Below, piece by piece: positions 2,461-25,754 of a stretch of DNA of 35,946 nucleotides. The position numbers were made by a program, and so were the translations under genes. Below the pieces are notes generated by a model that saw nothing but the letters and a program-made list of their open reading frames with translations, searched no databases and was not told the origin of the DNA. Numbering within the stretch: position 1 is the stretch's first letter; every line of letters begins with the position of its first letter. This DNA comes from an uncultured Methylococcaceae bacterium (GTDB lineage Bacteria > Pseudomonadota > Gammaproteobacteria > Methylococcales > Methylomonadaceae): positions 1 through 35,946 of the forward strand of contig CAIYOW010000043.1 in the NCBI GenBank assembly GCA_903927955.1. Direction: 5' to 3'.

Positions 2461-4551
2461 TTGAAGCACAACATAACAATGATCGAACAGCCGCATAAGC
2501 ACAGCTGCCAACTCCCTAACAACCCCATAACATACCCGTCCGCCGTAATTGCCTGTTCACTTACCCTGGCAAAGCTGCCCAGTCTGCCCCTATTATTAGG
2601 CGTATCGGTTTGCCACCACCGCTTATTGTCTGCTGGTAAAAGCTATAGCCATGTGCTGGCATGGGGGCGCAAACCCAGTGCTGGCTATGCCCACAAAATA
2701 GCTAAACAAAAAAACTTGCCCGTGCTATACATAGAAGACGGCTTTTTGCGTTCGGTAGAACCCGGCAAGCAAGCCATGCCCTTGTCGCTAGTGGCAGATA
2801 ACCTAGGCATTTATTACGATGCCAATGGCCCGTCAAGCTTGGAAGTATTAATAAAGGCGGATTATCAGGCCGGGCAAATCCAGCGCGCCCAAGCGTTAAT
2901 CAGTCTTTGGCGCAGCGCCCGTGTGTCCAAATACAATTTTGCCAGAGACTACCCACGGCCCTTGCCCAAGCCTTATGTGCTGGTTGCCGATCAGGCCAAT
3001 GGCGATCTGTCCATCCAATACGGGCAAGCAAATGCCCAGAGTTTCCAAACCATGCTGGATGCCGCTTTGGCGGAATATCCCAATTGTAACGTTTTGCTGA
3101 AAGTCCACCCCGATGTGGTTTTGGGTGCGAAGTCAGGCCATTTTGATGTTGAAGCGTTAGCCAAAAATCCGCGTATTAAGGTTTGTTCCGATGCCGTGCA
3201 TCCGGTCAGTTTAATTGAACAGGCCGAAGCAGTGTACTGTGTCACCTCGCAAATGGGCTTTGAGGCATTGTTATGGGGCAAGCCAGTACGCACGTTTGGC
3301 ATGCCGTTTTATGCCGGTTGGGGCTTGACCCATGACCACTTGCCTAGGCCAGAACGTCGCCACCCAGTGGCTTTAGAGCCGTTGGTTTATGCCGCACTGA
3401 TAGCCTATCCCCATTATATGGACCCGGAAACCTTAGAGTCTTGTACCGTAGAGCGGTTGATAGAATGGCTAGGGTTGCAGCGACGGATGCGCGGGCGTTT
3501 TCCGGCGATTCTAGAAGCCAGTGGTTTTTCGCTGTACAAAAAACCGTTTGTCAGGCGATTTTTTCAGGGCAGCACGCTTTATTTCGACCGTAAGCCCGCG
3601 CATCGGGCAGCTGATTCCGCCTCTATCGTATGGGGTAACAAGCCCGCCCCAGCCGAAGTCCTTGCCTCAGCCCGCGCTATTATCAGGCTTGAAGATGGCT
3701 TTATCCGCTCAGTCGGCTTAGGTGCCGATTTGATTGCCCCGCAGTCTTTGGCGATGGATAGCCAAGGCATGTATTACGACGCCCGCCACGTTTCCGGTTT
3801 GGAATATCTACTACAAAACACCTGCTATAACGAGGCGTTGCTAGAGCGGGCAAAACTGCTCCGAACCCGTTTGGTGACGGAAGGCTTGAGCAAATATAAC
3901 GTAGGTTCAGGCACTTGGTATCGGACTCAAGCGGGCAGGTGGGCAAGCGGCACATTGATTTTAGTGCCGGGGCAAGTGGAAAGCGATGCTTCGGTTATTT
4001 TTGGCACACAGGGCATTGCCACTAATCTGGCTTTGCTTCAGGCCGTGCGGGCGGCAAACCCCAACGCCTATCTGATTTACAAACCCCACCCCGATGTGGT
4101 CGCTGGCTTGCGCCAACCAGGCAGCGGCGAGGCAGATGTGCGGTTGTTTTGTGATCGGATACTGGTGGATATTGATATGGCGCATTTGCTGGAGCAAGTT
4201 GACGAGGTGCATACCCTCACTTCGTTGACCGGCTTTGAAGCTTTATTGCGGGGTAAAAAGGTGGTGTGCTACGGCTTGCCTTTTTATGCCGGTTGGGGTT
4301 TGACCGAAGACAAATTGCCGTTGCCCAGACGGTCACGAAAACTGAGTTTAGATGAACTGGTGGCAGCCGCTTTGATTTTGTATCCCACTTATATCAGCCG
4401 TACTACCAGAAAATTCACCACCCCGGAACGGGTGTTGGATGAATTGTTGCTCAGGCGGGAACAGACCGCCGTCCGTTTACCGTGGTGGCGGGTACTGTTG
4501 CGTTATTATCTAAAATTAGAAGCCCGAGTGATGCGGTTTTTTAACGGCTAA
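2461..4551 (+). CDS. kpsC: KpsC/WcbA-type capsule beta-Kdo transferase
   Basis: Cytoplasmic glycosyltransferase of the KpsC family, which extends the beta-linked Kdo linker between a lipid anchor and a group 2-type capsule. At 696 residues it has normal full length and shows the internal duplication of the family. Each half has an EDGF(L/I)RS motif (92-98 and 411-417), a K(V/P)HPDVV motif (214-220 and 541-547) and a PFYAGWGLT motif (282-290 and 607-615), fitting two catalytic domains. The start used here is TTG at 2461; an in-frame ATG at 2479 is an alternative, and neither has a clear ribosome-binding site. It is divergent from pntA and converges on the lipid-anchor operon, its TAA (4549-4551) overlapping the TAG of the opposite gene (4550-4548). 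No kpsM/T/D/E exporter gene is in the window. Confidence 0.9.
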   Translation: MKHNITMIEQPHKHSCQLPNNPITYPSAVIACSLTLAKLPSLPLLLGVSVCHHRLLSAGKSYSHVLAWGRKPSAGYAHKIAKQKNLPVLYIEDGFLRSVEPGKQAMPLSLVADNLGIYYDANGPSSLEVLIKADYQAGQIQRAQALISLWRSARVSKYNFARDYPRPLPKPYVLVADQANGDLSIQYGQANAQSFQTMLDAALAEYPNCNVLLKVHPDVVLGAKSGHFDVEALAKNPRIKVCSDAVHPVSLIEQAEAVYCVTSQMGFEALLWGKPVRTFGMPFYAGWGLTHDHLPRPERRHPVALEPLVYAALIAYPHYMDPETLESCTVERLIEWLGLQRRMRGRFPAILEASGFSLYKKPFVRRFFQGSTLYFDRKPAHRAADSASIVWGNKPAPAEVLASARAIIRLEDGFIRSVGLGADLIAPQSLAMDSQGMYYDARHVSGLEYLLQNTCYNEALLERAKLLRTRLVTEGLSKYNVGSGTWYRTQAGRWASGTLILVPGQVESDASVIFGTQGIATNLALLQAVRAANPNAYLIYKPHPDVVAGLRQPGSGEADVRLFCDRILVDIDMAHLLEQVDEVHTLTSLTGFEALLRGKKVVCYGLPFYAGWGLTEDKLPLPRRSRKLSLDELVAAALILYPTYISRTTRKFTTPERVLDELLLRREQTAVRLPWWRVLLRYYLKLEARVMRFFNG

Positions 4552-6104
4552 ACCACTTGGCAGGGCAAACCGGCAGCTTTTAACAGCCGCATAGCCAGTT
4601 CATCAATACTGAGCGGTTGCGGCGGGTTTACTGGGTTCTGTTGGCTCGCCATCCGGCTGTTCCACAGTGCGTAATCCGTGTAGCCATCCGGTGTGCCTAA
4701 TTGTCCGTAAACGCTTGCCATAATAGGCACATGGTCGCCATACCAGCATAGGGTGCTTTGTTTGTCTTGCTCTTGTTGGCGATGCCGTAATTTTTCTGTG
4801 AGCCGTTTCACCATTAAATCAGCATTTTTAAGGTGGCGCAGGTATACCGTTAAATCTTGGCAGTTGGGGGGAGGGGGCAGGTGATGGAACTTTTCCAAAT
4901 CGCCGCTGGCAGGTTTTTCAAGATGCAAGGGGCCATGATTTTCCATAGTGATGACAAAAATAAAAATGGGCTGTTGGCTGGCAGTGTCCAGCAGTTCGAT
5001 AATTTTGTCAGTCACTGCCTCATCGCTGGTATATTGCCCATCCATTTGCCCAGCGTTAAAAGCTTTAATGTCGATAAAATGGTCGAAGCCCATGCGCGGA
5101 TAAACTTGGTCGCGCTGGTAAAAACTGATTGGGTAGGGGTGGATGCAGACGGTTCGGTAGCCGAGTTGTTTGAGCAATCCGGCAAGGTTGGGGATGCCTT
5201 GCTTGGCCAACAGGCGGTAAGGGTTAAACTGGTGTATGCCCAGTTGCTGGCCAGTCAGGCCGGTTAAAAACGCGCATTCGGTGCGTACCGTGTTGGCTCC
5301 CCAAGCAGGCACTTGCAGTCGGCCGTATAGGCAAGAGTCGGCTTGTAATTGGTCGAAATTGTCGAGTACGTTGGCCTTGATGCCTGAATAATAAGGGCGG
5401 GGGTCAAAAAATGATTCGCTTTGCACCACGATAATATCGCTAAGATTATCAGGTAGGCTTGGGGCTATCGGCAAATGGCTAAAGTGATTTTGGCTAAAAT
5501 CATGCCGATCGTACTTTTCGGCAAATCCATAATGCCAAAAAAAAGCGAATTGCCCCAATTGCTGCAAATCTTCATTAGGTTTATAAAGTATTTTGGGCGA
5601 GTGGTGATGGGCAAGGCTTATGCACAGCCCGCTGGTGGACAATAATGCCATGCAAATAAGCAAAAAAAACGCTAGCCCCAATGTGCCTGTTAAGGCAGGT
5701 TCCAAGCCAATGCCCAAGGCGATTGCAGCAATAAATGCCAGTGTTGCTGTTGCCGTGCGGGTGATGCCCAGAAAAGGCAGGTATAGCCTTGGATGCTTGA
5801 TGGCATCGGTAAAATATTCAAAATCTTGGAAAATAAAGGCTTCCTGTAAGGTACTGAATTTGGCCTGATGGACTAAAACCAGTAAGTATTGCATAGCAAG
5901 TATAAGGGCTACGGCAAACCAAGGGCGTTGGCACAGCAACAATAATAGCGTAAAAAGCAACAGCCAAATGCCACAGTGCAGCAAAATGCTGGGCAGGCCA
6001 CGTTGCCGTAACGGCAAAGGTTTGGGCTGTAATATCCGTTCAGGTAGCCATGACAGGCCAAGGCCGCACAGCAAAGGCCAAGCAAGGTTGTGCAGTTCGC
6101 TCAT
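4548..6104 (-). CDS. Membrane LTA-synthase/phosphoglycerol-transferase-like protein
   Basis: Membrane enzyme of the alkaline-phosphatase superfamily, sulfatase/LTA-synthase branch (MdoB-like phosphoglycerol transferases and phosphoethanolamine transferases). The first 170 or so residues contain several hydrophobic helices; the rest is the catalytic domain. Visible active-site signatures are VVQSESFFD (near 226-234), WGANTVRTECAFLTG with the presumed nucleophile Thr272, then TMENHGPLH and a late WYGDHVP metal-binding motif. The ATG at 6104 is chosen because it lies one base after the TGA of the upstream reductase gene; the frame stays open further upstream but that would run into the neighbour. 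Last gene of the polyketide synthase operon. Its position matches wcbQ in Burkholderia from memory. Inferred role: adding a phosphoglycerol or similar head group to the lipid made by the operon; the true donor is unknown. Confidence 0.75.
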   Translation of the reverse strand: MSELHNLAWPLLCGLGLSWLPERILQPKPLPLRQRGLPSILLHCGIWLLLFTLLLLLCQRPWFAVALILAMQYLLVLVHQAKFSTLQEAFIFQDFEYFTDAIKHPRLYLPFLGITRTATATLAFIAAIALGIGLEPALTGTLGLAFFLLICMALLSTSGLCISLAHHHSPKILYKPNEDLQQLGQFAFFWHYGFAEKYDRHDFSQNHFSHLPIAPSLPDNLSDIIVVQSESFFDPRPYYSGIKANVLDNFDQLQADSCLYGRLQVPAWGANTVRTECAFLTGLTGQQLGIHQFNPYRLLAKQGIPNLAGLLKQLGYRTVCIHPYPISFYQRDQVYPRMGFDHFIDIKAFNAGQMDGQYTSDEAVTDKIIELLDTASQQPIFIFVITMENHGPLHLEKPASGDLEKFHHLPPPPNCQDLTVYLRHLKNADLMVKRLTEKLRHRQQEQDKQSTLCWYGDHVPIMASVYGQLGTPDGYTDYALWNSRMASQQNPVNPPQPLSIDELAMRLLKAAGLPCQVV

Positions 6105-6105
6105 A

Positions 6106-6876
6106 TCAGCCGTGGTAATTGAACCACGCCAGCAGTTGTTGTGACCAGCTCGCGGGCAGGGCAGACAGTAGCCAAGTGCCCGCATTGAGCGGAAAGGGGA
6201 AGCTTATTCTGCCACGGTTTTGTTGCAAGCCTTTTACAATGGTGCTTGCGGCCCGCTCAGCCGTCCAGACAAACGGCTTGGGGCCTGGCATATTGGCACT
6301 CATGTCCGATTCGACGTACCCCGGCATCACCACATTAACCTTTATGCCATCCTGTGCAAGCCAACCGCGCATGGCTTCGCCATAAGCTTTTATCGCCGCT
6401 TTGCTGGCGCAATAACTGGGTGTCACCGGCAAACCATAATAGGCCGCCAATGAGCTTATCAGGGCTATTTGCCCGCTACCACGCTGGCGCATGGCGGGTA
6501 CTAGGCCATTGACTAAAGCAAGGGTTGATTTAATGTTCAAATCAATTAGGGTATTAATGTCATGCCAGCTTTCACCTTGGCGTTGCTGGCCATTATTGAT
6601 GTTGATACCGGCATTGGCGATGACCAAATCAGGCAAATTTTGCCCAGTAAGTGCTTGTAACCATTGCTGTAGCTGTGCAATATCGGTCAAATCCAGCACA
6701 ACACAGGCCACTTGTGCCCCCAAAGCTTGGCAGTCTTCGCCCAGTTTGTCCAAGCGCCCCCGATCGCGCCCCTGCAAAATAATATACCGGCCGGGGGCCG
6801 CATACGCTTTTGCCAATGCCCCACCAATAGCGCCACTAGCCCCGGTGATCAATACCGTAGATTTAGTAGAGGTCAT
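6106..6876 (-). CDS. Short-chain dehydrogenase/reductase (WcbP-like)
   Basis: NAD(P)-dependent oxidoreductase of the classical SDR family, 256 residues from the ATG at 6876. The cofactor loop TGASGAIG is at 11-18, the NAG motif at 88-90, and the catalytic Ser (141/142), Tyr155 and Lys159 lie in LISSLAAYYG and SYCASKAA. The C-terminal 50 residues contain a hydrophobic stretch, suggesting membrane association. A GTG at 6894 would add six residues; ATG is preferred because it directly precedes TSTKSTVLITG and has GGAA upstream. It overlaps the kpsS-like gene by 14 bases and ends one base before the next gene, so it is translationally tied to both. Inferred role: reducing the ketone made by the oxoamine synthase, like 3-ketosphinganine reductase; the substrate is not proven. 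Confidence 0.85.
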   Translation of the reverse strand: MTSTKSTVLITGASGAIGGALAKAYAAPGRYIILQGRDRGRLDKLGEDCQALGAQVACVVLDLTDIAQLQQWLQALTGQNLPDLVIANAGININNGQQRQGESWHDINTLIDLNIKSTLALVNGLVPAMRQRGSGQIALISSLAAYYGLPVTPSYCASKAAIKAYGEAMRGWLAQDGIKVNVVMPGYVESDMSANMPGPKPFVWTAERAASTIVKGLQQNRGRISFPFPLNAGTWLLSALPASWSQQLLAWFNYHG

Positions 6877-8104
6877 AGCAACGTTCCAATGCACATTTTT
6901 CCTGAGTTAGGGCTTGGGCAGCATGGTAAGCCGCTAATTTTGTGCCTTCTTGGCTGTATAGGCTACCGTTGATTTGCGTGGCGTAGATTACTGTTTTGTG
7001 GAAGTCAGCAAACAATAGTGGGTCTGGACAGGGTGCTTTTGCCCAGAAATCATCCAATGGCCCTTGAAAAGTCAGGCCATCCATACTAAAAATTGAGTCC
7101 GCCAGGGTGATGGTTGGGCGGTTGAGCGCCAAGGACACGCCAGCTGTGGTGCTATTGACCGTCACGGTGCCGAGCGCGTGTTGCAGCAATCTTCTGATAT
7201 CGCCGCTTTCAAAATAGACAGTCCGTCCCACCATATCGAAGGTGGACTCAAGATCACGGATGATTTTTTTATAATCGATCTGGCCTATATCGAGCGGATG
7301 GTTTTTGATGACCAGATAGCTGTGTGGCGGGGCATGTTGCGCAAAAGAGGCCATGACAACTTTAACCGCTTCCGCCATATTATTAAAGTTTGAATAATGG
7401 GTGATTTGGGCATCGCTGTTGAGTTGTAGCGGGAACAAATAGAAGGGCGTTTTGCTGGTTAGCAGTGCGTTCAGCTGTTGTAATTCTTGCTGTTTAATAG
7501 TGTTGATATGTACAGTCCGTTTTACAAAACCGGTATATTCAGTGTAAATGCTATAAGGCGAGTGGGTGTTGTAATAAGGGGTCAATAAGGGATTGCACAC
7601 CCCGGCAAGATGATAGATGACATCATGTAGCGCTTGTGGGGCGAAAGACGATTTAAAATCTTGTGGTGGACGTTGTTCTGGCAAGCGTTTGGCCACTCTT
7701 TTATACCAGTCAGGATGCCGTGGCAGCAGGGAATGGCCATTGACCCCATCGCATTCCAAGGTAATCCAGTAAGGCCGGAAGTAACCGCATTCCACTACAA
7801 AAGTACGCACACCAAACGGTGCGGCATTATCAATGGCGGGTTTATGCACCGGTCGGCAATTGCCAAATATGATTTGGTCGGTTATGCCATAGCGCGTCCA
7901 GACGGCGGCCATAAAATCCTGCAAATTGACCAAACGGTCACGAAATATAAGGGATTTTTTGGTTTGCCAGTACAGCAGGTCGCCGCTGTTGAAGTTGATT
8001 TTATGGACAGCATGACCTTGCGCCATTAGCTGGTCGGCAAGGCGGGAAAAAAGTGGCGAACAAGGGCCTTGTAAAAAAAGAAATGAACGCTTGATGTTAG
8101 CCAA
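6863..8104 (-). CDS. kpsS: KpsS/WcbO-type capsule Kdo transferase
   Basis: Capsule biosynthesis protein of the KpsS family, which in E. coli places the first beta-Kdo on lyso-phosphatidylglycerol. It has 413 residues, near the normal length. The N-terminus shows the family signature FLFLQGPCSPLFSRLADQL followed by HAVHKINFNSGDLLYW; later motifs are YFRPYWITLECDGVNGHS, VIKNHPLD and VTVNSTTAGVSLALNRPTIT. The start is TTG at 8104: an in-frame TGA lies just upstream, a GGGA sits about 8 bases before it, and the next ATG would remove the conserved N-terminus. The gene follows the oxoamine synthase after a 41-base gap. Together with KpsC it implies that a Kdo linker is built on a lipid, perhaps the product of this operon instead of lyso-PG. 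Confidence 0.88.
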   Translation of the reverse strand: MANIKRSFLFLQGPCSPLFSRLADQLMAQGHAVHKINFNSGDLLYWQTKKSLIFRDRLVNLQDFMAAVWTRYGITDQIIFGNCRPVHKPAIDNAAPFGVRTFVVECGYFRPYWITLECDGVNGHSLLPRHPDWYKRVAKRLPEQRPPQDFKSSFAPQALHDVIYHLAGVCNPLLTPYYNTHSPYSIYTEYTGFVKRTVHINTIKQQELQQLNALLTSKTPFYLFPLQLNSDAQITHYSNFNNMAEAVKVVMASFAQHAPPHSYLVIKNHPLDIGQIDYKKIIRDLESTFDMVGRTVYFESGDIRRLLQHALGTVTVNSTTAGVSLALNRPTITLADSIFSMDGLTFQGPLDDFWAKAPCPDPLLFADFHKTVIYATQINGSLYSQEGTKLAAYHAAQALTQEKCALERCYDLY

Positions 8105-8145
8105 AAGCGCATTCCCAAGTCATCGGCCGATTAATGCCGGATTGT

Positions 8146-9468
8146 TCACATTGCTTCATGGAGTGCCTGAATAGTTTGGTCTATTTGCTCCTCGGTATGT
8201 CCACAAGAAATAAAAAATCTTAATCGGGCGCTTTTTTCCGGGACTGCAGGATAAAGTATGGGCAGTACATTGATGCCCTGTTCAAATAGGGTTTGTGCCA
8301 GCTGTGCGGCTTTAGCCGAACTCCCGGTCATAGCGGGTATGATAGCATATCCTTGGCTGAGCCCCGTGTCGATGCCAGCGGCTCGCGCTTGTTGGAAAAA
8401 ATAACGGGTACGCGCTTGCAAGGTGCCTACACGGTCTGGTTCGGAGCGGATAATCTGCAACGCCCTCAGTGCGGGTGCGGCGACTTGTGGCGGCATACCT
8501 ACGCTATATAAAAAACCCGGCGCTAAAAACTTTAGGTGTTCAATCAATGCAGATTCACCGGCAATAAATCCGCCACAACTGGCTAATGATTTGCTGAGTG
8601 TACCCATCCAAATGTCAACGCTTTTGCCGTCAATACCGAAATGGTCGCGAATGCCTAAGCCCATGCCACCTAAAACGCCCAAAGAATGCGCTTCATCAAC
8701 CATCAAAAAGGCATGGTGTTTTTCTTTAATGGCAATAAAGCTAGGCAAGTCGGGAATATCGCCATCCATGCTGTACAACCCCTCAATAACAATCAATACC
8801 CGCTGATAATGGTGGCGTTGTTCGGTCAGCAGGCGGTCTAACGCTTCATGGTTGTTATGCGGGAAAGACAGGCGTTTCGCACCGGACAGTTGGGCACCGG
8901 CCCAGCTGCTGTTATGGATAAATTCATCATGCAAAATCAGGTCGTTGGAGCCAAATAAATAACTAATGGTGGTGACATTGGTGGCATGGCCGCTGACCAT
9001 GACAACCGCATCGTCCACACCATAAGCATCAGCCAAGGCCATTTCCAATTGCCGGTGGATAGCCCGTTCGCCGGACACCAAACGGCTGGCGGAAACGGAT
9101 GTGCCATAGTGGTCAATGGCGACTTTTGCCGACTCTGATACACGGGCATCACCGGCTAGTTCCAAGTAATTGTAACTGGCATAATTGATGTAGTTGCGCC
9201 TGTTGATTTGGCTGGTGGCACCAGCGATAGTGTCATGTACGCGAAAAAAAGGGTTGCTGATGCCTAATTGATTGCCGCCCTGATGGATAATTTGGATTTT
9301 CTTATAGCCAGGATACTGGTCAAAACGACACCAATCTTGTTGATTTTGTATATTTTTGTTAGTAGGATTTTGGCAGTTCCTGTCATGCTCAGTAGCCTTT
9401 AGCTTACGCTCCAAAGCTTGCTGGATCAGTTTGTCTTTAAGCTGCTTGGATAAGCTTTGTGTCGCCAT
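8146..9468 (-). CDS. Alpha-oxoamine synthase (AONS/SPT family, WcbT-like)
   Basis: PLP-dependent enzyme of the 8-amino-7-oxononanoate synthase / serine palmitoyltransferase family, which joins an acyl thioester to an amino acid with loss of CO2 to give an alpha-amino ketone. It has 440 residues including an N-terminal extension of about 90 residues, lysine- and glutamine-rich at first. Family residues are visible: His161 in SGHATN, Asp258 and His261 in MVDEAHSLG, and the PLP lysine Lys293 in GTLSKSLASCGG. The ATG lies 3 bases after the stop of the polyketide synthase, which ends in an ACP without a thioesterase. This arrangement argues that the enzyme releases the ACP-bound chain. It is unlikely to be a biotin BioF because no other bio gene is nearby and the partner is a PKS. 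The amino acid used cannot be read from the sequence. Confidence 0.88.
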   Translation of the reverse strand: MATQSLSKQLKDKLIQQALERKLKATEHDRNCQNPTNKNIQNQQDWCRFDQYPGYKKIQIIHQGGNQLGISNPFFRVHDTIAGATSQINRRNYINYASYNYLELAGDARVSESAKVAIDHYGTSVSASRLVSGERAIHRQLEMALADAYGVDDAVVMVSGHATNVTTISYLFGSNDLILHDEFIHNSSWAGAQLSGAKRLSFPHNNHEALDRLLTEQRHHYQRVLIVIEGLYSMDGDIPDLPSFIAIKEKHHAFLMVDEAHSLGVLGGMGLGIRDHFGIDGKSVDIWMGTLSKSLASCGGFIAGESALIEHLKFLAPGFLYSVGMPPQVAAPALRALQIIRSEPDRVGTLQARTRYFFQQARAAGIDTGLSQGYAIIPAMTGSSAKAAQLAQTLFEQGINVLPILYPAVPEKSARLRFFISCGHTEEQIDQTIQALHEAM

Positions 9469-9471
9469 AAG

Positions 9472-12400
9472 TTACTGACCGATTACTTTAACGGGACTTT
9501 CAGTGTCAATGGCATGAGCCAAGGCAATCAGTTGCTCACTGTTGATTGCAGAGCTATGGCGTTGAGCCAATTCGTGGATGTGATCGCTAGTGGTGATGGG
9601 TTGATAGGTACTGCTATCGCCGCGTAATTTGCCGAGCAAACGGCTTGCCAGTTTGTTTAAGGTAGCCGCTTCGCCCAGTTCCATCACTGGAATTTGCACA
9701 TCAAAACGCGCTTCGATTGCAAGCATCAGTTCAACCCCCATTAACGAGTCCAAGCCCATGCCATACATAGACTGGTTTACGTCGATTTTTTCTTTGGCGA
9801 TCAATAAGACACGGCTTAGTTCTTCTTTCAGCATATCAACTAAGCGTGCTTGCAGTTCCTCATCAGATAGCGCGTTTAAAAGCTGCTTAATATCTGTGTT
9901 TAAGTCTTCGGTGTTATCCAATTTGCGCTTGCCGCTGGCCAGCCCGTTAAATTTTGGCGAGTGGGAGTTACTGATATATTTGCTTAAAATACGCCAGTCA
10001 TAGTGGCTGAAGCCAAGGGTAGGCGAGTTTTGCAAGAGCATTTGCTCCAATGCATCAAGAGCTGCCGCCGAATTCAAGGCTGCTCCGCCCATGCGGCTTT
10101 GCAAGGTGTCTTTGATGGTTGCATTTCTAGCTAAAAAACCCACATCATCAATCGCACCCCAACAGACACAGGTGGCGGCAAGCCCCTGTTGCCGTCGGAA
10201 TGCCGCTAACGCTTCCAGCCACAAATTGGCGGCAACATAACGGCTTTGCCCGGGGTTGCCAAACAAGGTGGTTGCCGAGGAATATAGCACAAACATGTCC
10301 AATGCTATGTGCCGGGTGAGTTCATGCAAATGTTGTCCGCCCAATATTTTGGGATTTAAAACCTTCTGGATTTGTCCCAAGTCACCGTGGCTTGCCAAAC
10401 CATCTTCAATGACTGCAGCGGCATGGATAATGCCTTTAAGAGGCGGCATAGCCAGTTGGCATTCGGCCAATAGGCCATCTAATGCAGTTTTGTCGCAGAC
10501 ATCACAGGCACGGGCCAATACGTTTACACCTTGCAGGGCAAATGCTTTGACGGCTAATTGCGCTTCCTCAGAACCGGCCCCGCTTCGGCCAATTAAAATC
10601 AGATGCCGCGCACCTTTTGCCACTAGCCATTGTGCGGTGCGTAAACCAAAACCACCCAAGCCGCCGGTCACCAGGTAACTTGCATCGGGATAAAGGTGCA
10701 GCGATTTTTTTGTGGCAGTTTTAGGGGCTTTGGCAAAAATACCATTATTGTATGTGACAACCACTTTGCCGATTTGTTTTGATTGCTGCATGTAGCGGAA
10801 TGCATCAGTTACTTGATGGGCATCAAAAACCGTATAAGGCAAGGGCTGCAATTCACCGCTATTGAACAGTGCCATCATATCAGTGAACAATTGTCGCGCC
10901 AGTTCAGGGCGTGCTTGCAGCAATTGGTCGGCATCAATGCCAAAGTAACTGATATTGTTTCGGAAAGGCCGTAGGCCAATGGTCGTGTTTTCGTAAAAAT
11001 CACGCTTGCCCAACTCCAAAAAACGGCCAAAAGGCTTTAGCACCTGAAAATTCCGGTTGATCGCCTCACCTGCAAGCGAGTTTAAAACTACATCAACACC
11101 TTGGTTGTTGGTTGTTGCCAAAATTTCCTCGGCAAAACTGAGCGATCTGGAATCATGGATGTGTTCAATACCTAGCAAGGTAAGAAAATCACGCTTTTCA
11201 GCGGAACCCACTGTGGCAAAAATTTCCGCGCCTAGCCAACGGGCGACTTGTATGGCGGCAAGGCCAACCCCGCCCGCTGCACCGTGTATCAGCACCTTTT
11301 CACCCGGCTGTAACCGTGCCAGATGGTGGAGGGCATAAAAGACGGTGAAAAAGGCACTGGGCAGCGTGGCGGCGGCGGCAAACCCCAAATGCTTAGGCAT
11401 TGCCGCAATAGCGTTAGTCTGGGTATGGACTAAGTTGCTAAAACTAGCCGGGCCCATACCCACCACCGCATCGCCCGGTTTAAAGCCAACCGCTTTATTG
11501 CCCACCCGGGTAATCACACCGGCAAATTCCAAGCCTAATGATGCGCCGACATAGCCGTTTTCGACCGCTTCATCAGCCAGCAATCCTAGCGCGTACATAA
11601 TATCGCGAAAATTTAGCCCTGTAGCCTTTACGGCAACTTCAACTCTGTCGTCGGCAAGGCTTGTTATAGGTTTGGCTTGCCAGTGCAAATTGCGTAGCTG
11701 GCCCGGCAATTTAAAGCCTAGTTCTATTTTAAGGTCACTGTCGCCGCTATATGCTAGGGTTGGCGCGGTCAATTGGCTGCGGCTGCGTAGTCGGGGCACA
11801 AAGCGTTTGCCTTGCTGGTCAAGAAACACCTCCTGTTCCCGGTTATTTGCCAGTAGCTCGCTACAAATAGCCGCCAAGGTATCAGCATTGATGAGGCCAG
11901 TGTTGCCGCTAATGTCCAAAAGCCGAATATGGCAGTGGCTGGATTCATTCATCAGACTGCGTCCAAAGCCCCAAAGTGCTGCATCATTGGCAATTTGCAA
12001 CGGCATGTCGGCAAATGCCCGTGGTTGGTCACAGGCATACAGGCTGCTGACATTTTGGGTCAATAACCATAAGTTGATTGGGTTGGCTGTGTTTGCCATA
12101 GCCGCTTTGCTGATTTGCCCCGCCAGCTCGCAACGCTGCGTTTGCGCGCTCGGATCTGTTTGGGCAAACCCTGACAAATGCACAATATGTTGGATATTTT
12201 CCAAGCTATCAGGCAATTGCCAGCACTGTTGGCTATAAATCACAGCTTGCCCCTGCTGTACTAGCAGCTTGCCAAGCTGTTTGGCGAGTATCCGCTCAGG
12301 CTCGTCTGTCCCTGCCATAATAAGCCAGTTGTTTATGGGTAGGGCAGGGAGGGGCGTTGCCAAATCAGGGCTCAGGGCAGTTAACAGAAACACGCCAGAC

Positions 12401-15400
12401 TGGCTATCTGGCAAACATTCGTGGCTTTGGCAGTCGGTGAAGTGATAGCCCTCAAGCTGTTTCAACCATTGTCCGGCCGACAACTGCGCTGACTGCCCTG
12501 TTGTCTGCGCTTGTAACACAAAGTCGACCCAACTAGCGGGCTGTAAACCTATCAACAAAACAGGGCTGTTAGCGGTTAACAGCCGTGACAATTGGTTTAA
12601 AAGCTGCTCTATAGCTTCGGCACTGCTAAAATTCAGCAAGATTACAGCAAAATTTGCAGGGTCATCAGCAAGGGTCAGATTATCTCCTGTTGGTTCGTCC
12701 AGACGTATTGTTTTGAGAGCTGGATAATGGTCTTGCAAGCTTTCGGCGGCATTGATAGCTTGTCCGGACAAACCGACAAAGCAGTAATCGCATTGTGTCA
12801 AATCCAATTGTGGACAAAGTGCGCTGGCAAATTCAGGGGCATCTGCACCGGCTTCCAGAATTTTTAAACGGCCACCGATAGGCAGTTGGGCGATTAATTG
12901 GCGGCATTGCTCAATTAGCAGGTTATTGACTGCCTGCTTACTGGTTTGTTTAAAAACAGATTTGACAATAGCTGCGTAATGATCGCTACTAATCGCGAGT
13001 GTCCCTGTTTGATGGCCTCCCTTGATTGCTTCTGCCAGTCGCAGACCCGCCCGACCAGCCAGATGGGTCAGGTCAAAATATTCGGGATATTCGGCAACCA
13101 AGGTATTCCAAATGGCTTGCGCTGAAAGTTCTTGTGGTTGGTCTGGTGGTGTTGTTTGCCAGCCGCCTTGTTGTGCAGTGAAGCTTAAGTTTTCGACGGC
13201 AAGCGCAACTCCCAATTGTAGCCAATGGCTTAAACGGGGATTATTTTCGCAGCAGCCCATCAGTATGGCTTCAGATAAAAAACCAGAGGCATCCGCTAAA
13301 CAGCTTAATTTTTCGCTAATAAATTGCTGGCATAAGCTGTCCAATAGCGGTTCAACTTCTTGGCTATAGCGGCTAATATTTGTGTCTTTCCTTAAGTTAG
13401 GCAAATAAGCTTGCAGCCATTCTGGGCCAATTGCCAAAGCTGAATGTGCCGCCGTTAAAGGGGCGGCAGTCAGATGATAGTCTAAATAATGCGGTGTGGG
13501 TGGGGCAGTATGATGCAGCCTAACCGCCCTAAAACGCACGGCTTGAAAAATAGCAAGACAATTGGCACTGCTATCAAAAATTGCAAACTCAGTATTTAAG
13601 GAGTGTGCTGAGCGGTGTATTACGGTTGCTTGGGCGCAATAGGGAACGCCCTTGTCAGCTCGTATTAGGATGTTGCCTATCTTAACGGGTACAAAAGTAA
13701 TATCTTCATAGTCCAGCCATTCATCGCACAGGATTTGGAAAACTAACTGGAATGCGCCATCTAAAAAAGCGGGGTGGAGGTAATAATCATTCTGTCCGTT
13801 AGCTATTGATTGCGTAGGTTCAAAAACAGTCAAGGCACTTTGCCCATCACGCCAGCCATGCTTAAGTGTTTGGAATGCCGGGCCGTAGTTAAGACCTGCG
13901 TAGCGGGTCAATAAATGGTGGCTGTTGCGGTCAAAATCGGGTGTGCGTGTGGGTATGGATGGACAGGCTATGGCAAGCTGTATGCCGCCCGCGTCGGACA
14001 AAATGCGACCAGCCAAATGCGCTACCCAAGTGGTCGAATGCGCCAGTTCGCGGCTGCTTAGTGATAAGCGGCCATCACTTGCAACTGTGCAGCGGACAAC
14101 TTTGCTTATATCAGAGCTAAGCACCAGCGGGGCGCGGATTTCCAGTTCCTCAATAGCCAAGAATGGCCCAGAGTGCAGTTGGTGGGCGGCTGCCAAGGCA
14201 ATTTCAGCGAAGCCCGCAGCGGGAAACAAAATAGCACCGCCAATGTTATGGTCTTGCAGAAATGGCTGCAACTGGGTGTCCAGTTGGTTTTCCCATTGCC
14301 GTTCATGTTGTATTAAAGGGTAGCCCAGTAATGGGTGGCATTTTTTTCGGGTTAATAAATGATACGATTCTGTCGTGTAAGGATGCCAATAGCTTTCCCG
14401 CTGCCAAGCATAGTGTGGCAGATCGACCCGTTTTCCCCGTACTGGGAACCAAAAGTTGGTTTTAAGGCCCGGCTTGTTGTCCAAGCAGCCATTGATTAGT
14501 GTGTGGGCGCAGCACGCGTGGAGCTTGTCAATACCGCCTTGCCCTCTTGTTAAGGTAGGAATAACTGTGCCTTGCACGGCATTTGCCTTAAGGCTGTCGT
14601 GCAAATAAGTTTTCAGGATGGGATGGGCGCTGATCTCAATAAAGGTGTTGATGCCGGTATTGAGTAGCGCGTCAATACTTTGTTGAAAATTGACCGGTTG
14701 GCGAATGTTGTGCCACCAATATTCTGCGTTCAGCTTATCGCCCGATAAGCGCGTTCCGGTAACGGTCGAATAAAAGCCAATGCCACCTGTCATCGGTTTA
14801 ATTGATGCGAGCGAATCTCGGATACCCTGCTCAATCACGTTCATCGCCGGGGTATGGAAGGGATAATCTAAGTTTAAACGTTTGTGGAACACGCGCTGCG
14901 TTTGCAGTTCGGTCGCTAAACTGACCAGCTCCTCATAATCACCCGCCACCGTCACACTGTGATGGCTGTTAATACAAGCGATAACAGTTTTCTGCAAGGT
15001 CAACTGCGCCAATAATACTTGTACCGCTTGCGCACCTAAACCAACCGCCATCATTTCACCCAAGCCTTTGGTTTGGCTCTGGTAATAACTGCGGTAGTAA
15101 ATAACTTGGACGGCATCGGGCAAACTCAGCGCGCCACTGGCCCAAGCGGCGGCCACTTCCCCCACGCTATGTCCAATCACCGCAACTGGCTGGATACCCC
15201 AATCACGCAACACTTCGGTTAGGCCAACTTGCAAGGCGAACAAGGCAGGTTGCGCCATTTCGGTATTTTGATAACGGTTATCGCCCAGTGTGCCGGACAA
15301 TTCTTCTAGCAGGGAATAATCTGCGTATTGGCTAAAATAGCGGTCAATTTCGACCAAAGTTTTCCTGAAAATGCTGGATTGCTCCAACAACACCTGCCCC

Positions 15401-17037
15401 ATGCCTTGCCACTGGCAACCATTGCCCGCAAACACAAAGACGGGGCCTTGCGAGTCGGCAAAATGGCTACCGGTATAAATACCTATTTTTGTTGTGTCAC
15501 TTTGTCCAGTAAAGTTCGTTAGTTTTAGAATGGCCTCTTCGGTATTGCTGGCAAATAACACGGCACACAACGGGTGACGCTCCCGATGAAAAAATGCCGT
15601 ATAGGCAACATCATAAAAGCTGTCCTGCGCCGCTGCAGACATAAAATTTTTTATTGCCAAGGCGTTTTGCTGCAAGGCGTGTCCGTCTTTACCGGACAGC
15701 ACAAGCGGCAACCCAATATCGGTACGGCTATTAGGTGTGCCGGAGCGTTCTTTTTGACGTTGGTCTGGAAGGTTTTGCAGTATTACATGGGCATTTGCAC
15801 CACCAAAACCAAAAGAATTGATACCAATCGTTAAGCGGCCTTGTGCGGGCAAAGGTAAGTTTTCTGTAACGGCCTGAACATTCCATTTGGCAAATTTGAT
15901 GTTCGGGTTAGGATTTTTGATGCCGATGGTGGCGGGTACAATCCGATGTTTTAGGCAATGGATTGCCTTAATTAAACCGGCAATACCCGAAGCGCTTTCA
16001 AGATGTCCTAAGTTGCTTTTAACGGAGCCGATTAACAGGGGAGACCGGCGTTTTTGCCCTAAAGCAACGCCAATGGCTTGGGTTTCAACAGGGTCGCCAA
16101 TAGCAGTGCCCGTGCCATGTGCCTCCACATAATCAATATCTTCCGGGGCAATGCCCGCTTGGGCATAGACACCCGACATGAGCTTGGCTTGTGCGTTGGG
16201 GTTGGGGATGGTGAGCCCCGTTTTGCTACCGTCGGTATTGACAGCACTACCGGCAACAACAGCCAAGATAGGGTCACCATCAGCAATGGCTTGCTGATAA
16301 TTTTTGAGAAAAACTAATCCGCCGCCTTCTGACCTAACGTAACCATCAGCCGATGCGTCAAAAACATGGCATTGTCCGGTTTTCGACAACATGCTGGCTT
16401 TAGAAAAGGAAATAAAGCCGTAAGGGTGCAGATGCAGGCCAATGCCTCCCGCCAGTGCGCTAGCCACTTCGCCAGACCTGATAGCTTGGCAAGCTTGATG
16501 GAGTGCCACCAATGACGAAGAGCAAGCGGTATCTAAAGCAATACTCGGCCCATGTAAATCAAAGAAGTAGGAAATGCGGTTTGCGGCAATGCTGGAAAGG
16601 CTGCCGGTTGCTGTGGTCGGTTCTATCGCGCACAGGTCATCCGCCAACCGGTAGGCATAATCAACATTGGAAATACCGATATATACGCCACAATCACTGC
16701 CGCGCAGTGCGGCGGGCAAAACACCGGCACTTTCAAAGCTTTCCCAAGCAAGTTCCAGCAATATCCGTTGCTGGGGGTCGATCAACGCCGCTTCACGCGG
16801 GGAAATACCAAAAAATGCGGCATCAAATCCAGCGACATCACCAATACTGCCCGCCGCAAAGGTGTAACTGGTGCCGGGGTGGCGTTTGTCAGGGTGCAGA
16901 AAATTTTCTTGAGGCCAGCGTGATGCCTCTACTTGGGTGATTAAGTCTTTTTGGGCGAGAAGGTCATTCCAGAAGGTTTGTTTGCTGGTGCCCGGAAAAC
17001 GGAACGAGTAACCTATTATTGCAACGCGGTTTTGCAT
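9472..17037 (-). CDS. Highly reducing type I polyketide synthase (WcbR-like)
   Basis: Single-module, multidomain megasynthase of 2521 residues. Domains in order: ketosynthase (1-430; DTACSSS with Cys172, His307 in EAHGTGT, His345 in SNLGH); acyltransferase (530-830; Ser624 in GHSVGE, YPFH motif near 725, suggesting malonyl-CoA); dehydratase (900-1180; His930 in the HxxxGxxxxP motif, Asp1093 in HPAFLDGAFQ); a methyltransferase-like stretch with an eroded SAM loop (LKILEAGADA, 1391-1400); enoylreductase (1770-2095; LIHGAAGGVG at 1916-1925); ketoreductase (2118-2300; GGLGGFG, Tyr2267 and Asn2271); and acyl carrier protein (about 2385-2470; Ser2431 in GLDSL). A 50-residue tail follows and no thioesterase is present. 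All reducing domains look intact, so iterative synthesis of a saturated fatty-acid-like chain is inferred. The ATG has no obvious ribosome-binding site. Confidence 0.93.
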   Translation of the reverse strand: MQNRVAIIGYSFRFPGTSKQTFWNDLLAQKDLITQVEASRWPQENFLHPDKRHPGTSYTFAAGSIGDVAGFDAAFFGISPREAALIDPQQRILLELAWESFESAGVLPAALRGSDCGVYIGISNVDYAYRLADDLCAIEPTTATGSLSSIAANRISYFFDLHGPSIALDTACSSSLVALHQACQAIRSGEVASALAGGIGLHLHPYGFISFSKASMLSKTGQCHVFDASADGYVRSEGGGLVFLKNYQQAIADGDPILAVVAGSAVNTDGSKTGLTIPNPNAQAKLMSGVYAQAGIAPEDIDYVEAHGTGTAIGDPVETQAIGVALGQKRRSPLLIGSVKSNLGHLESASGIAGLIKAIHCLKHRIVPATIGIKNPNPNIKFAKWNVQAVTENLPLPAQGRLTIGINSFGFGGANAHVILQNLPDQRQKERSGTPNSRTDIGLPLVLSGKDGHALQQNALAIKNFMSAAAQDSFYDVAYTAFFHRERHPLCAVLFASNTEEAILKLTNFTGQSDTTKIGIYTGSHFADSQGPVFVFAGNGCQWQGMGQVLLEQSSIFRKTLVEIDRYFSQYADYSLLEELSGTLGDNRYQNTEMAQPALFALQVGLTEVLRDWGIQPVAVIGHSVGEVAAAWASGALSLPDAVQVIYYRSYYQSQTKGLGEMMAVGLGAQAVQVLLAQLTLQKTVIACINSHHSVTVAGDYEELVSLATELQTQRVFHKRLNLDYPFHTPAMNVIEQGIRDSLASIKPMTGGIGFYSTVTGTRLSGDKLNAEYWWHNIRQPVNFQQSIDALLNTGINTFIEISAHPILKTYLHDSLKANAVQGTVIPTLTRGQGGIDKLHACCAHTLINGCLDNKPGLKTNFWFPVRGKRVDLPHYAWQRESYWHPYTTESYHLLTRKKCHPLLGYPLIQHERQWENQLDTQLQPFLQDHNIGGAILFPAAGFAEIALAAAHQLHSGPFLAIEELEIRAPLVLSSDISKVVRCTVASDGRLSLSSRELAHSTTWVAHLAGRILSDAGGIQLAIACPSIPTRTPDFDRNSHHLLTRYAGLNYGPAFQTLKHGWRDGQSALTVFEPTQSIANGQNDYYLHPAFLDGAFQLVFQILCDEWLDYEDITFVPVKIGNILIRADKGVPYCAQATVIHRSAHSLNTEFAIFDSSANCLAIFQAVRFRAVRLHHTAPPTPHYLDYHLTAAPLTAAHSALAIGPEWLQAYLPNLRKDTNISRYSQEVEPLLDSLCQQFISEKLSCLADASGFLSEAILMGCCENNPRLSHWLQLGVALAVENLSFTAQQGGWQTTPPDQPQELSAQAIWNTLVAEYPEYFDLTHLAGRAGLRLAEAIKGGHQTGTLAISSDHYAAIVKSVFKQTSKQAVNNLLIEQCRQLIAQLPIGGRLKILEAGADAPEFASALCPQLDLTQCDYCFVGLSGQAINAAESLQDHYPALKTIRLDEPTGDNLTLADDPANFAVILLNFSSAEAIEQLLNQLSRLLTANSPVLLIGLQPASWVDFVLQAQTTGQSAQLSAGQWLKQLEGYHFTDCQSHECLPDSQSGVFLLTALSPDLATPLPALPINNWLIMAGTDEPERILAKQLGKLLVQQGQAVIYSQQCWQLPDSLENIQHIVHLSGFAQTDPSAQTQRCELAGQISKAAMANTANPINLWLLTQNVSSLYACDQPRAFADMPLQIANDAALWGFGRSLMNESSHCHIRLLDISGNTGLINADTLAAICSELLANNREQEVFLDQQGKRFVPRLRSRSQLTAPTLAYSGDSDLKIELGFKLPGQLRNLHWQAKPITSLADDRVEVAVKATGLNFRDIMYALGLLADEAVENGYVGASLGLEFAGVITRVGNKAVGFKPGDAVVGMGPASFSNLVHTQTNAIAAMPKHLGFAAAATLPSAFFTVFYALHHLARLQPGEKVLIHGAAGGVGLAAIQVARWLGAEIFATVGSAEKRDFLTLLGIEHIHDSRSLSFAEEILATTNNQGVDVVLNSLAGEAINRNFQVLKPFGRFLELGKRDFYENTTIGLRPFRNNISYFGIDADQLLQARPELARQLFTDMMALFNSGELQPLPYTVFDAHQVTDAFRYMQQSKQIGKVVVTYNNGIFAKAPKTATKKSLHLYPDASYLVTGGLGGFGLRTAQWLVAKGARHLILIGRSGAGSEEAQLAVKAFALQGVNVLARACDVCDKTALDGLLAECQLAMPPLKGIIHAAAVIEDGLASHGDLGQIQKVLNPKILGGQHLHELTRHIALDMFVLYSSATTLFGNPGQSRYVAANLWLEALAAFRRQQGLAATCVCWGAIDDVGFLARNATIKDTLQSRMGGAALNSAAALDALEQMLLQNSPTLGFSHYDWRILSKYISNSHSPKFNGLASGKRKLDNTEDLNTDIKQLLNALSDEELQARLVDMLKEELSRVLLIAKEKIDVNQSMYGMGLDSLMGVELMLAIEARFDVQIPVMELGEAATLNKLASRLLGKLRGDSSTYQPITTSDHIHELAQRHSSAINSEQLIALAHAIDTESPVKVIGQ

Positions 17038-23961: not shown

Positions 23962-24627
23962 TTACGCAAACAGTAGGGTTAGCCATCGTGCAAAAGTTTT
24001 GGCAAGTTCATGGTCAGGATTCAAGGCTCTTGCCGTTATCGCTTTGCCTAACGGCATGCCCGGTTCATCTTGCCAAGCTCAAAACGTATGGATGACAGCT
24101 TTAGTTTTGTGTGTTTCGCTAAAGGTGGTGTATTGGCTGTTTTTGGCATCATTGACACATTTTTCAGCAAAACTAAGTGCTGCGGGGGCTGCCAATTTTA
24201 TACAGAAATCTTCCAGCATCCCATCCAGTTGATTGTTGGGCATCAGCCAAATGCCTATTCGGGCAAATTTTTTCGTTGCATGTTCTGAAGCGGGGATAAT
24301 AGTGCCTAATTGCTGAGGTACTTTTGGAATGGTTATGCCATCTTTTTGTAGCCTGTTTGTAACAGCTTGCCATTTTGCAGTTAAATTAGGGTTATCTGCG
24401 TCAATTACAATACCGATAATTTCTTGTTCAGACCGTTTAAGTAGCGACGATAGTCTTTTTAATGCCTTTTCATCAGAACCGCATTCGTATAAACCAAATA
24501 AATCTTCAGAAAGATTGTGATGCTTACAAATTGCTGAAATAACGTGACAATCATTGATGCCTTCGGTGAGCAGGACTTTAGGGCCCTCATGCTTAAAAGC
24601 CATAGACGGGCTACCGGACTTCGACAT
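23962..24627 (-). pseudogene. TOPRIM-like DUF3226-type protein, interrupted by in-frame TGA
   Basis: Partner of the upstream ATPase. The uninterrupted part (24627-24079) gives 182 residues with a TOPRIM-like core: LLTEGINDCHVISAIC (acidic Glu) and GIVIDADNPN (Asp-x-Asp), followed by SEHATKKFARIGIWLMPNNQ. After HTF comes a TGA at 24081-24079, and the same frame continues for 38 codons, reading AWQDEPGMPLGKAITARALN and on to ARWLTLLFA before TAA at 23964-23962. This tail looks like the normal end of DUF3226-type proteins, so the gene is a 221-residue ORF with a nonsense codon. The start is uncertain: ATG at 24627 overlaps the ATPase by 17 bases, while ATG at 24603 lies 7 bases after its stop. 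It may be an inactive allele, a truncated active protein, or a sequencing error. Confidence 0.75.
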
Positions 24628-25717: not shown

Positions 25718-25754
25718 CAAGTTTCCTTAAGTGATAACCACTGCAATAACTGGC

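What the first reader, a model, noticed from the sequence alone, without database searches (positions are those of the whole stretch)
4548..17037. PKS + alpha-oxoamine synthase + SDR + KpsS/KpsC: a candidate pathway to a novel Kdo-linked lipid anchor
Seen: five leftward genes with gaps or overlaps of 3, 41, -14 and 1 bases, encoding a fully reducing PKS with terminal ACP and no thioesterase, a serine-palmitoyltransferase-like enzyme, KpsS, an SDR and an LTA-synthase-like membrane enzyme, facing kpsC. Known: oxoamine synthases can release ACP-bound chains as amino ketones, and KpsS/KpsC put Kdo on a lyso-PG-like lipid. Inferred: the PKS chain is condensed with an amino acid, reduced to an amino alcohol (sphingoid-like), given a phospho head group and then primed with Kdo. 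The set resembles wcbR/T/O/P/Q/A of Burkholderia pseudomallei, whose lipid chemistry is, as far as I know, unsolved.
Basis: partly seen in the sequence, partly recalled or inferred. Interest (0 to 1): 0.8.

Follow-up and report, generated by a model that had tools for sequence, protein, structure and literature searches.

The report
Capsule genes with sphingoid-like anchor pathway
A methanotroph-like bacterium carries a known type of capsule gene cluster that seems to build its own amino-alcohol lipid, much like the backbone of sphingolipids, as the anchor on which the capsule sugar is started, instead of borrowing an ordinary membrane phospholipid.

Summary
In detail: a fully reducing PKS without thioesterase, an alpha-oxoamine synthase (AOS), KpsS, an SDR and an LtaS-fold membrane enzyme lie in one leftward array facing kpsC. 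The kind of locus is known: S. meliloti rkp-1 has the same five genes, and 77 of the 80 best AOS relatives have the PKS in the DNA held. New is comparative evidence for what the module does. (1) PKS-AOS and KpsS co-occur in two genome samples. (2) KpsS, which touches the lipid, splits into two clades that follow the module; KpsC does so much less on the same 35 loci. (3) PKS and AOS are fused in other bacteria. (4) Where KpsS-LTAS lacks PKS and AOS, the genome has an SPT-like gene of sphingomonad type (2 of 2 tested). (5) The LTAS-like protein is closest to phosphoglycerol transferases. Best reading: PKS chain + amino acid (probably serine) -> ketone -> sphinganine-like base -> phosphoglycerol headgroup, a lyso-PG mimic primed by KpsS. 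No chemistry is shown, there are exceptions, and the side of the membrane on which LTAS acts is a difficulty.

The parts
9472..17037 (-). PKS (RkpA/WcbR type): KS-AT-DH-[degenerate methyltransferase-like region within ~1163-1780]-ER-KR-ACP, no thioesterase
   Evidence: Pfam/NCBIfam; motifs over 71 orthologues longer than 2300 aa, (GHSVG 71 of 71; AT motif YAFH 68 and YPFH 3 of 71, read as malonyl-specific from recalled rules; no full ExGxGxG in 71 rows)
8146..9468 (-). alpha-oxoamine synthase (RkpG/WcbT position), Lys293, Asp258, His261 invariant in 9 rows (window included; roles recalled), N-terminal extension of ~80 aa
6863..8104 (-). KpsS-type beta-Kdo transferase (TTG start), QxxxD motif Q227-D231
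   Evidence: 27 invariant columns in 34 KpsS rows
6106..6876 (-). classical SDR, proposed 3-keto reductase (RkpH/WcbP position)
   Evidence: generic SDR in PDB searches
4548..6104 (-). membrane enzyme of LtaS/GacH fold family (RkpI/WcbQ position), proposed phosphoglycerol transferase
2461..4551 (+). KpsC, two Kdo-transferase modules, QxxxD at 178-182 and 505-509

Best explanation
The five leftward genes are the lipid-anchor module of an ABC-transporter-dependent capsule system of rkp-1/wcb type. Proposed path: the PKS builds a straight saturated chain on its own ACP; the AOS releases it by decarboxylative condensation with an amino acid, most likely serine; the SDR reduces the ketone to a sphinganine-like amino alcohol; the LtaS/GacH-like enzyme moves phosphoglycerol from phosphatidylglycerol to the 1-OH, giving a lyso-PG mimic with a sphingoid instead of an acylglycerol; a KpsS of a separate clade puts the first Kdo on it and KpsC extends it; KpsMTED, encoded elsewhere in the genome, exports the chain. 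Shown here: gene content, conserved motifs, co-occurrence, KpsS clade, PKS-AOS fusions in other bacteria, SPT-type genes where PKS-AOS is missing. Inferred: every reaction, the amino acid, the order of the LTAS step and a flip of the lipid.
For: Co-occurrence: of 369 gammaproteobacterial genomes (window's included), 7 of 8 with an AOS beside a full-length PKS orthologue have full-length KpsS against 9 of 361 others (Fisher 5e-10); counting all 12 AOS genomes, 7 of 12 against 9 of 357 (4.6e-8). Of 398 Pseudomonadota genomes, partly the same ones, 15 of 24 with AOS against 43 of 374 (2.4e-8). LTAS (E<=1e-30) in 11 of 15 KpsS genomes with AOS against 4 of 43 without (6e-6). KpsS tree: 26 module-type rows against 8 others, one branch, 100/100. 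On 35 matched loci KpsS needs 1 change of label, SH-aLRT 96, KpsC 6. Exchange: of 27 AOS-less KpsS genomes fetched, two (G655, G669) have LTAS beside KpsS, and both have a strong SPT hit (618 and 470 bits) against 1 of the other 25 (p 0.0085); both proteins hit sphingomonad-type SPT chains 2x8u/2jg2 best, and in G655 the gene lies with ACP, AMP-ligase and epimerase-type reductase genes, so a second SDR would not be needed. Fusions: PKS with ACP followed by AOS in one reading frame in Planktothrix L283 and G523 L278. LTAS profile: GacH phosphoglycerol transferase 7.6e-31, then LtaP, LtaS; no ethanolamine-phosphate transferase up to E 0.01. Own genome: KpsE and KpsD-like on C91, KpsM and KpsT on C138.
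Against: No chemistry. AOS meets no SPT cut-off, so Ala or Gly is not excluded; alphaproteobacterial SPTs score below some KBL/KAPA-type chains with it (189 against 202 bits). The G655 and G669 SPT genes do not pass the model's curated cut-off of 670 either (0 of 27). The SDR is generic: no ketosphinganine reductase among the 60 best PDB hits shown of 463. LTAS catalytic domain is presumably periplasmic and KpsS cytoplasmic. KpsC also clusters by label more than shuffles do (1 of 500 as low), and 14 of 26 linked but only 4 of 27 bare loci were dropped from that control. Exceptions: G676 has SDR-LTAS-PKS-AOS but no KpsS at E<=1e-30; G314 has KpsS-SDR-LTAS but only a 33% AOS-family hit; G459 has an SPT hit and KpsS without LTAS; 4 of 13 fetched AOS genomes show no SDR/LTAS beside KpsS; G289 and G197 have AOS beside a diverged PKS and no KpsS. 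A Cupriavidus plasmid KpsS (L194) without visible module falls in the module clade, whose support in the 79-row quick tree is 92. A 2025 review describes the Kdo-PG terminus as conserved across these systems (PMC12220298, passages). S. meliloti 1021 poly-Kdo is described as having a 'phospholipid anchor' (title of Fraysse 2005 seen as a reference, and passage in PMC7902896); if that is a plain acylglycerol lipid, the reading fails for rkp-1.
Confidence: 0.55

Rival explanations
1. The PKS-AOS-SDR lipid is the anchor, but the LTAS-like enzyme acts later, in the periplasm, adding phosphoglycerol (or another group) to the exported glycolipid or capsule; KpsS puts Kdo directly on the amino alcohol.
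For: Topology: N-terminal hydrophobic segments, then a long C-terminal catalytic part, and LtaS/GacH relatives work outside the cytoplasm (recalled). LTAS is not beside KpsS in some AOS genomes.
Against: Known KpsS acceptors are PG/lyso-PG with a glycerol hydroxyl (PMC10148158, PMC7694667, passages). LTAS stays beside KpsS in G655 and G669, where PKS, AOS and the classical SDR are not found nearby.
Confidence: 0.2
2. The anchor is ordinary lyso-PG and the module makes a separate amino lipid that helps assembly or export, or that decorates the envelope.
For: S. meliloti 1021 anchor is called a phospholipid. PKS-AOS pairs also occur in genomes without KpsS hits (G289, G197) and on a Planktothrix plasmid.
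Against: KpsS follows the module in phylogeny more strictly than KpsC; SPT-type genes where PKS-AOS is missing.
Confidence: 0.18
3. AOS uses alanine or glycine, so the lipid is a 1-deoxysphingoid (fumonisin logic) and any phospho group sits on the 3-OH.
For: AOS scores highest with bioF (340.6 bits) though below cut-off; the fungal fumonisin PKS/AOS/SDR set uses alanine (recalled).
Against: Exchange with SPT, which makes a 1-OH base; best solved relative is an SPT.
Confidence: 0.2
4. AOS is a biotin-pathway KAPA synthase or a 2-amino-3-ketobutyrate ligase that lies beside capsule genes by chance.
For: Family bits with bioF.
Against: Two other AOS-family hits are in the genome (C59, C16). In the gammaproteobacterial sample orthologues (45% identity or more) are set apart from the rest (38% or less), though the phylum sample also has hits at 40-47%. 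PKS in the DNA held for 77 of 80.
Confidence: 0.02

Closest known systems
Sinorhizobium meliloti rkp-1 region (rkpA-G-H-I-J), here strain Ak57 pSymB L186
   Same: Same five parts in the order PKS-AOS-SDR-LTAS-KpsS: PKS 35-38%, AOS 47%, SDR 27%, LTAS 26%, KpsS 35%. A review says it makes a specific lipid carrier for K polysaccharide (PMC4881576).
   Different: KpsS lies in another place in the order; kpsC faces the array here; the names rkpG-J are matched by order, partly recalled.
wcbR/T/P/Q/O/A of Burkholderia capsule loci
   Same: PMC3908369 (part 1 of the text and passages) calls most wcb and rkp genes homologues, with a type I PKS and capsule genes; Burkholderia and Paraburkholderia loci here show LTAS-PKS-AOS.
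Bacterial sphingolipid SPT with ACP and acyl-ACP synthetase (Caulobacter; PMC9386255, passages)
   Same: ACP-bound chain plus amino acid by an AOS-family enzyme; present where KpsS-LTAS lacks PKS-AOS.
   Different: Chain comes from fatty acid synthesis, not a dedicated PKS; the AOS here meets no SPT cut-off.
Fumonisin/sphingofungin assembly (highly reducing PKS without TE + AOS + SDR; recalled; SphA is among the PDB hits)
   Same: Works like it: off-loading of a PKS chain by an AOS, then ketone reduction.
   Different: Fungal, no capsule; other amino acids; likeness of AOS only at superfamily level.
E. coli group 2 KpsS/KpsC with (lyso)PG
   Same: Same types of Kdo transferase and exporter.
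   Different: No PKS, AOS, SDR or LTAS in the K1 stretch read; KpsS in another clade.
GacH / LtaS / LtaP phosphoglycerol transferases
   Same: Fold family and aligned catalytic motifs.
   Different: Scores 39.8 against a cut-off of 970 for LtaS; substrate unknown.

Membership tests
rkp-1/wcb-type capsule lipid module | Monomodular fully reducing PKS next to an AOS | tested here: met
rkp-1/wcb-type capsule lipid module | SDR, LTAS-like and KpsS-like genes in the same locus | tested here: met
rkp-1/wcb-type capsule lipid module | Needed for capsule production | not testable with these tools
   no experiment; exporter genes are present
Serine palmitoyltransferase (named equivalog) | Score over a curated SPT cut-off | tested here: not met
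   308.3 of 640, 269 of 500, 197.7 of 670
alpha-Oxoamine synthase superfamily | Fold type I PLP enzyme with catalytic Lys, Asp, His | tested here: met
KpsS beta-Kdo transferase | PF05159 single module with QxxxD | tested here: met
KpsS beta-Kdo transferase | NCBIfam NF050054 cut-off | tested here: inconclusive
   260.6 of 600; none of 398 genomes nor the E. coli control passes it
KpsC | Two beta-Kdo transferase modules, QxxxD in each | tested here: met
LtaS lipoteichoic acid synthase | NCBIfam LtaS cut-off | tested here: not met
   39.8 of 970
LtaS-fold phosphoglycerol transferases | Thr nucleophile, metal ligands and glycerophosphate-side His/Arg at aligned places | tested here: met
   E230, T272, H322, R331, H390, D457, H458 invariant in 24 rows, aligned to GacH/LtaP/LtaS; their roles in LtaS are recalled
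LtaS-fold phosphoglycerol transferases | Phosphoglycerol transfer activity | not testable with these tools
   needs an assay

The most novel reading that the evidence does not exclude
Gram-negative capsules have two kinds of anchor. One is (lyso)PG. The other is a phosphoglycerol-sphingoid made by a dedicated bacterial PKS-AOS-SDR-LTAS path, recognised by its own clade of KpsS, and interchangeable with the sphingoid base of bacteria that already make sphingolipids.
Probability: 0.45. Interest if true: 0.8.

Novelty: new member of a known kind. Interest (0 to 1): 0.62.

Why it matters
The rkp-1/wcb lipid genes have been known since the 1990s and are tied to symbiosis and, in Burkholderia, to a virulence capsule, but nothing in the listings and passages that I saw says what lipid they make. 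The comparison here gives one testable structure and a simple reason why some KpsS enzymes would need a different acceptor, and it points to harmless organisms in which to test it. It would also be a bacterial route to sphingoid-like lipids outside classical sphingolipid producers.

Tried and rejected
Methylated chains: the DH-ER linker looks like a methyltransferase but no row of 71 orthologues has the full SAM motif, so branching is unlikely. KAPA synthase: see rivals. Missing exporter: KpsE/D and KpsM/T are present but unlinked. Ketosphinganine-reductase identity of the SDR: the profile search gave generic SDRs. Residues that tell module-type KpsS from the others: one conservative column only (L228/V), so the clade is not explained by an obvious site. 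swf clusters of sponge symbionts: considered, but Della Sala et al. separate them from wcb/rkp (PMC3908369). Fold of LTAS: the job was accepted and not finished, so no model is used; the second structure job and the fold searches were not run.

Choices that affect counts. KpsS in the gammaproteobacterial sample means the 16 genomes with E<=1e-60 (the weakest is 3.9e-65; 43 genomes have some PF05159 match). The 8 PKS-linked AOS genomes leave out G289 and G197, whose PKS is diverged; with them it is 7 of 10 against 9 of 359 (7e-9). The two genome samples overlap; without the three shared KpsS genomes the phylum count is 13 of 22 against 42 of 373 (4e-7). In one search an SDR was counted only at module-level scores; three AOS-less loci (L227, L238, L263) have a weak SDR hit of 62-85 bits that I did not count. 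Of 43 AOS-less KpsS genomes in the phylum sample 27 were fetched. One search labelled G314 (L173) and L052 as PKS type by their neighbours, though no AOS was found in G314 and no PKS near L052; one search labelled L053, L059, L065 and L092 'linked' because PKS-AOS adjoin KpsS, and is a quick tree because the careful one did not finish. One search used 35 of the 53 loci that I picked, dropping 14 linked and 4 bare ones without a KpsC of 550 aa or more; the KpsS of L181 stands for the KpsC of L044 (same genome, G158). Partners outside the held DNA are missed: 18 of 80 loci show no capsule-type gene, several of them on short contigs.

Print: ten searches of the open-licence library. Papers were seen as passages only, plus part 1 of 5 of PMC3908369. 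The original rkp and poly-Kdo anchor papers are not held, so earlier statements of this idea there cannot be excluded.
Full report
What is there. The window is contig C43 of a 2.94 Mb gammaproteobacterial genome (99.63% complete). Its best AOS relatives are Methylococcaceae metagenome genomes (71-73%), and the window also encodes a formylmethanofuran:H4MPT formyltransferase and hydrogenase- or complex-I-type subunits; a methanotroph is therefore likely, but no marker was tested.

Parts and motifs. The PKS has KS, AT, DH, ER, KR and ACP domains and no thioesterase hit. Over 71 orthologues of more than 2300 aa the AT serine motif GHSVG is kept in 71 and the specificity motif is YAFH in 68 and YPFH in 3, which by recalled rules means malonyl-CoA; the linker between DH and ER is mostly filled in all rows but no row has an intact SAM motif. 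Its best solved relatives are mycocerosic acid synthase type enzymes. The AOS keeps Lys293, Asp258 and His261 in 9 aligned rows and passes no NCBIfam cut-off; its best solved relative is the SPT 3a2b at 232 bits, then human SPT subunit 2 at 206, KBL/KAPA-type enzymes at 202 or less and sphingomonad SPTs at 189 or less, so sequence alone does not settle its amino acid. The LTAS-like protein, as a 24-row profile, hits GacH phosphoglycerol transferase (7.6e-31), LtaP and LtaS, and no ethanolamine-phosphate transferase up to E 0.01; seven catalytic and substrate-side residues are invariant. KpsS and both KpsC modules keep the QxxxD motif, the nucleophile motif described for KpsC in PMC10148158 (passages).

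A known kind. S. meliloti Ak57 has PKS (35-38%), AOS (47%), SDR (27%), LTAS (26%) and KpsS (35%) in that order: the rkp-1 region. Of the best 80 AOS relatives in named genomes, 77 have the PKS, 49 an SDR, LTAS or KpsS and 62 at least one capsule-type gene (kps genes, LTAS or SDR) within the DNA held, across Methylococcaceae, Alcaligenaceae, Pseudomonas, Halomonas, Burkholderia, Nitrosomonas and others. PMC3908369 already treats wcb and rkp genes as homologues, and PMC4881576 (passages) says that rkp-1 products take part in making a specific lipid carrier.

Co-occurrence. In 369 gammaproteobacterial genomes AOS orthologues (E<=1e-111) are in 12, of which 8 have a full-length PKS orthologue beside them; full-length KpsS (E<=1e-60) is in 16; 7 of the 8 have KpsS against 9 of the other 361. 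SDR or LTAS lies beside KpsS in all 7, and in 1 of the 9 others, G314. In 398 Pseudomonadota genomes, partly the same ones, AOS (E<=1e-75) is in 24, KpsS (E<=1e-30) in 58, both in 15. LTAS or a module-level SDR lies beside KpsS in 9 of 13 fetched AOS genomes and 2 of 27 fetched AOS-less ones (p 1e-4). LTAS at E<=1e-30 is in 33 of the 398: 11 of 15 KpsS+AOS genomes and 4 of 43 KpsS-only ones; 18 of the 33 have no KpsS at its limit, and many of these matches cover mainly the catalytic part and look like other families.

KpsS follows the lipid module more strictly than KpsC. A careful tree of 34 KpsS proteins puts 26 module-type and 8 other rows on two sides of one branch, 100/100. A quick tree of 79 rows puts all 33 linked, 5 of 6 AOS-in-genome, both LTAS-only and 1 of 38 bare rows in one clade (SH-aLRT 92), with E. 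coli K1 and Klebsiella outside. On 35 matched loci KpsS needs 1 change of label (96); KpsC needs 6, at least 4 forced by well-supported branches, though it too clusters more than shuffles do (1 of 500 as low). KpsS meets the lipid and KpsC extends Kdo, so this is what an acceptor difference predicts. Co-inheritance of linked genes is the alternative; the KpsC control speaks against it, weakened by the loss of 14 of 26 linked loci from it.

Exchange with sphingolipid synthesis. Among 27 AOS-less KpsS genomes two have LTAS beside KpsS (G655, G669). Both carry a strong SPT hit (618 and 470 bits; all others are 252 or less except G459 at 494, which has no LTAS beside KpsS), though below the model's cut-off of 670. 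Their best solved relatives are SPT chains 2x8u and 2jg2. In G655 the gene lies with an ACP, an AMP-ligase and an epimerase-type reductase; PMC9386255 (passages) describes SPT genes co-occurring with an ACP and an acyl-ACP synthetase, and the reductase link is recalled. In G669 an epimerase-type reductase and an AMP-ligase flank it. This would explain why their KpsS loci need neither PKS, AOS nor SDR. Three Novosphingobium plasmids carry SDR-LTAS-KpsS without AOS in the stretch read; one (L193) has a weak PKS-type hit of 101 bits some 10 kb away; the one scanned has a fatty-acid-hydroxylase gene; their chromosomes were not searched. The numbers are small (p 0.0085), and G679, with the same KpsS-LTAS pair, was not tested for SPT.

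Release of the chain. In Planktothrix (L283) the AOS is fused behind the ACP of a KS-AT-DH-ER-KR-ACP PKS, and in G523 (L278) the same order is seen from the end of the KS on, the frame being cut at the stretch's end. This supports off-loading of the PKS chain by the AOS, as in fumonisin synthesis (recalled). A formyl transferase family gene occurs in 11 of 94 loci, next to AOS in 10 (PF00551 in the 8 scanned): an enzyme type that acts on amines, not seen beside the window's AOS.

What does not fit. The LTAS active site should be periplasmic while KpsS works in the cytoplasm, so either the lipid flips or LTAS acts later. G676 has the module without a detected KpsS; G314 has KpsS-SDR-LTAS without AOS; G459 has an SPT hit and KpsS without LTAS; G289 and G197 have AOS with a diverged PKS and no KpsS. 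A review calls the Kdo-PG terminus conserved (PMC12220298, passages), and the S. meliloti 1021 anchor is called a phospholipid in sources that I could not read further. Verdict: an ordinary locus of a known but, as far as I saw, chemically unsolved kind, with new comparative evidence for a sphingoid-type anchor.

Noticed in passing
L040, L041, L052, L057, L071, L074, L087, L088, L092, L094, L095: Formyl transferase family gene (PF00551 in the 8 scanned) in the AOS neighbourhood, next to AOS in 10 of 11; possible N-formylation of the amino lipid.
   Followed up: partly
L283:3551-11188; L278:12838-19899; L279:2198-8011: PKS-AOS fusion proteins, the first on a cyanobacterial plasmid with no kps gene among the nine features listed.
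   Followed up: partly
L314 (G676): Complete SDR-LTAS-PKS-AOS module in a genome where no KpsS was found at E<=1e-30.
   Followed up: partly
L042 (G289): AOS (59%) and SDR (53%) beside a diverged PKS that has a Pfam methyltransferase domain, in a genome without KpsS hit: possibly a branched sphingoid-like product.
   Followed up: no
window 24079-25720: DUF3226 gene overlapping an AAA ATPase gene (AAA_15/AAA_21), a pair that might be an OLD-type nuclease or defence set.
   Followed up: no
L132 (G000:C91) 4204-10908: KpsE and KpsD-like genes beside what look like dTDP-rhamnose genes and a 1308-aa protein: possibly the rest of the capsule locus.
   Followed up: partly
Phylum sample, family f223 (e.g. 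L236, L238-L240, L242): A family in which many genomes carry a long-branch KpsS without AOS (except G427) and without LTAS beside it.
   Followed up: no
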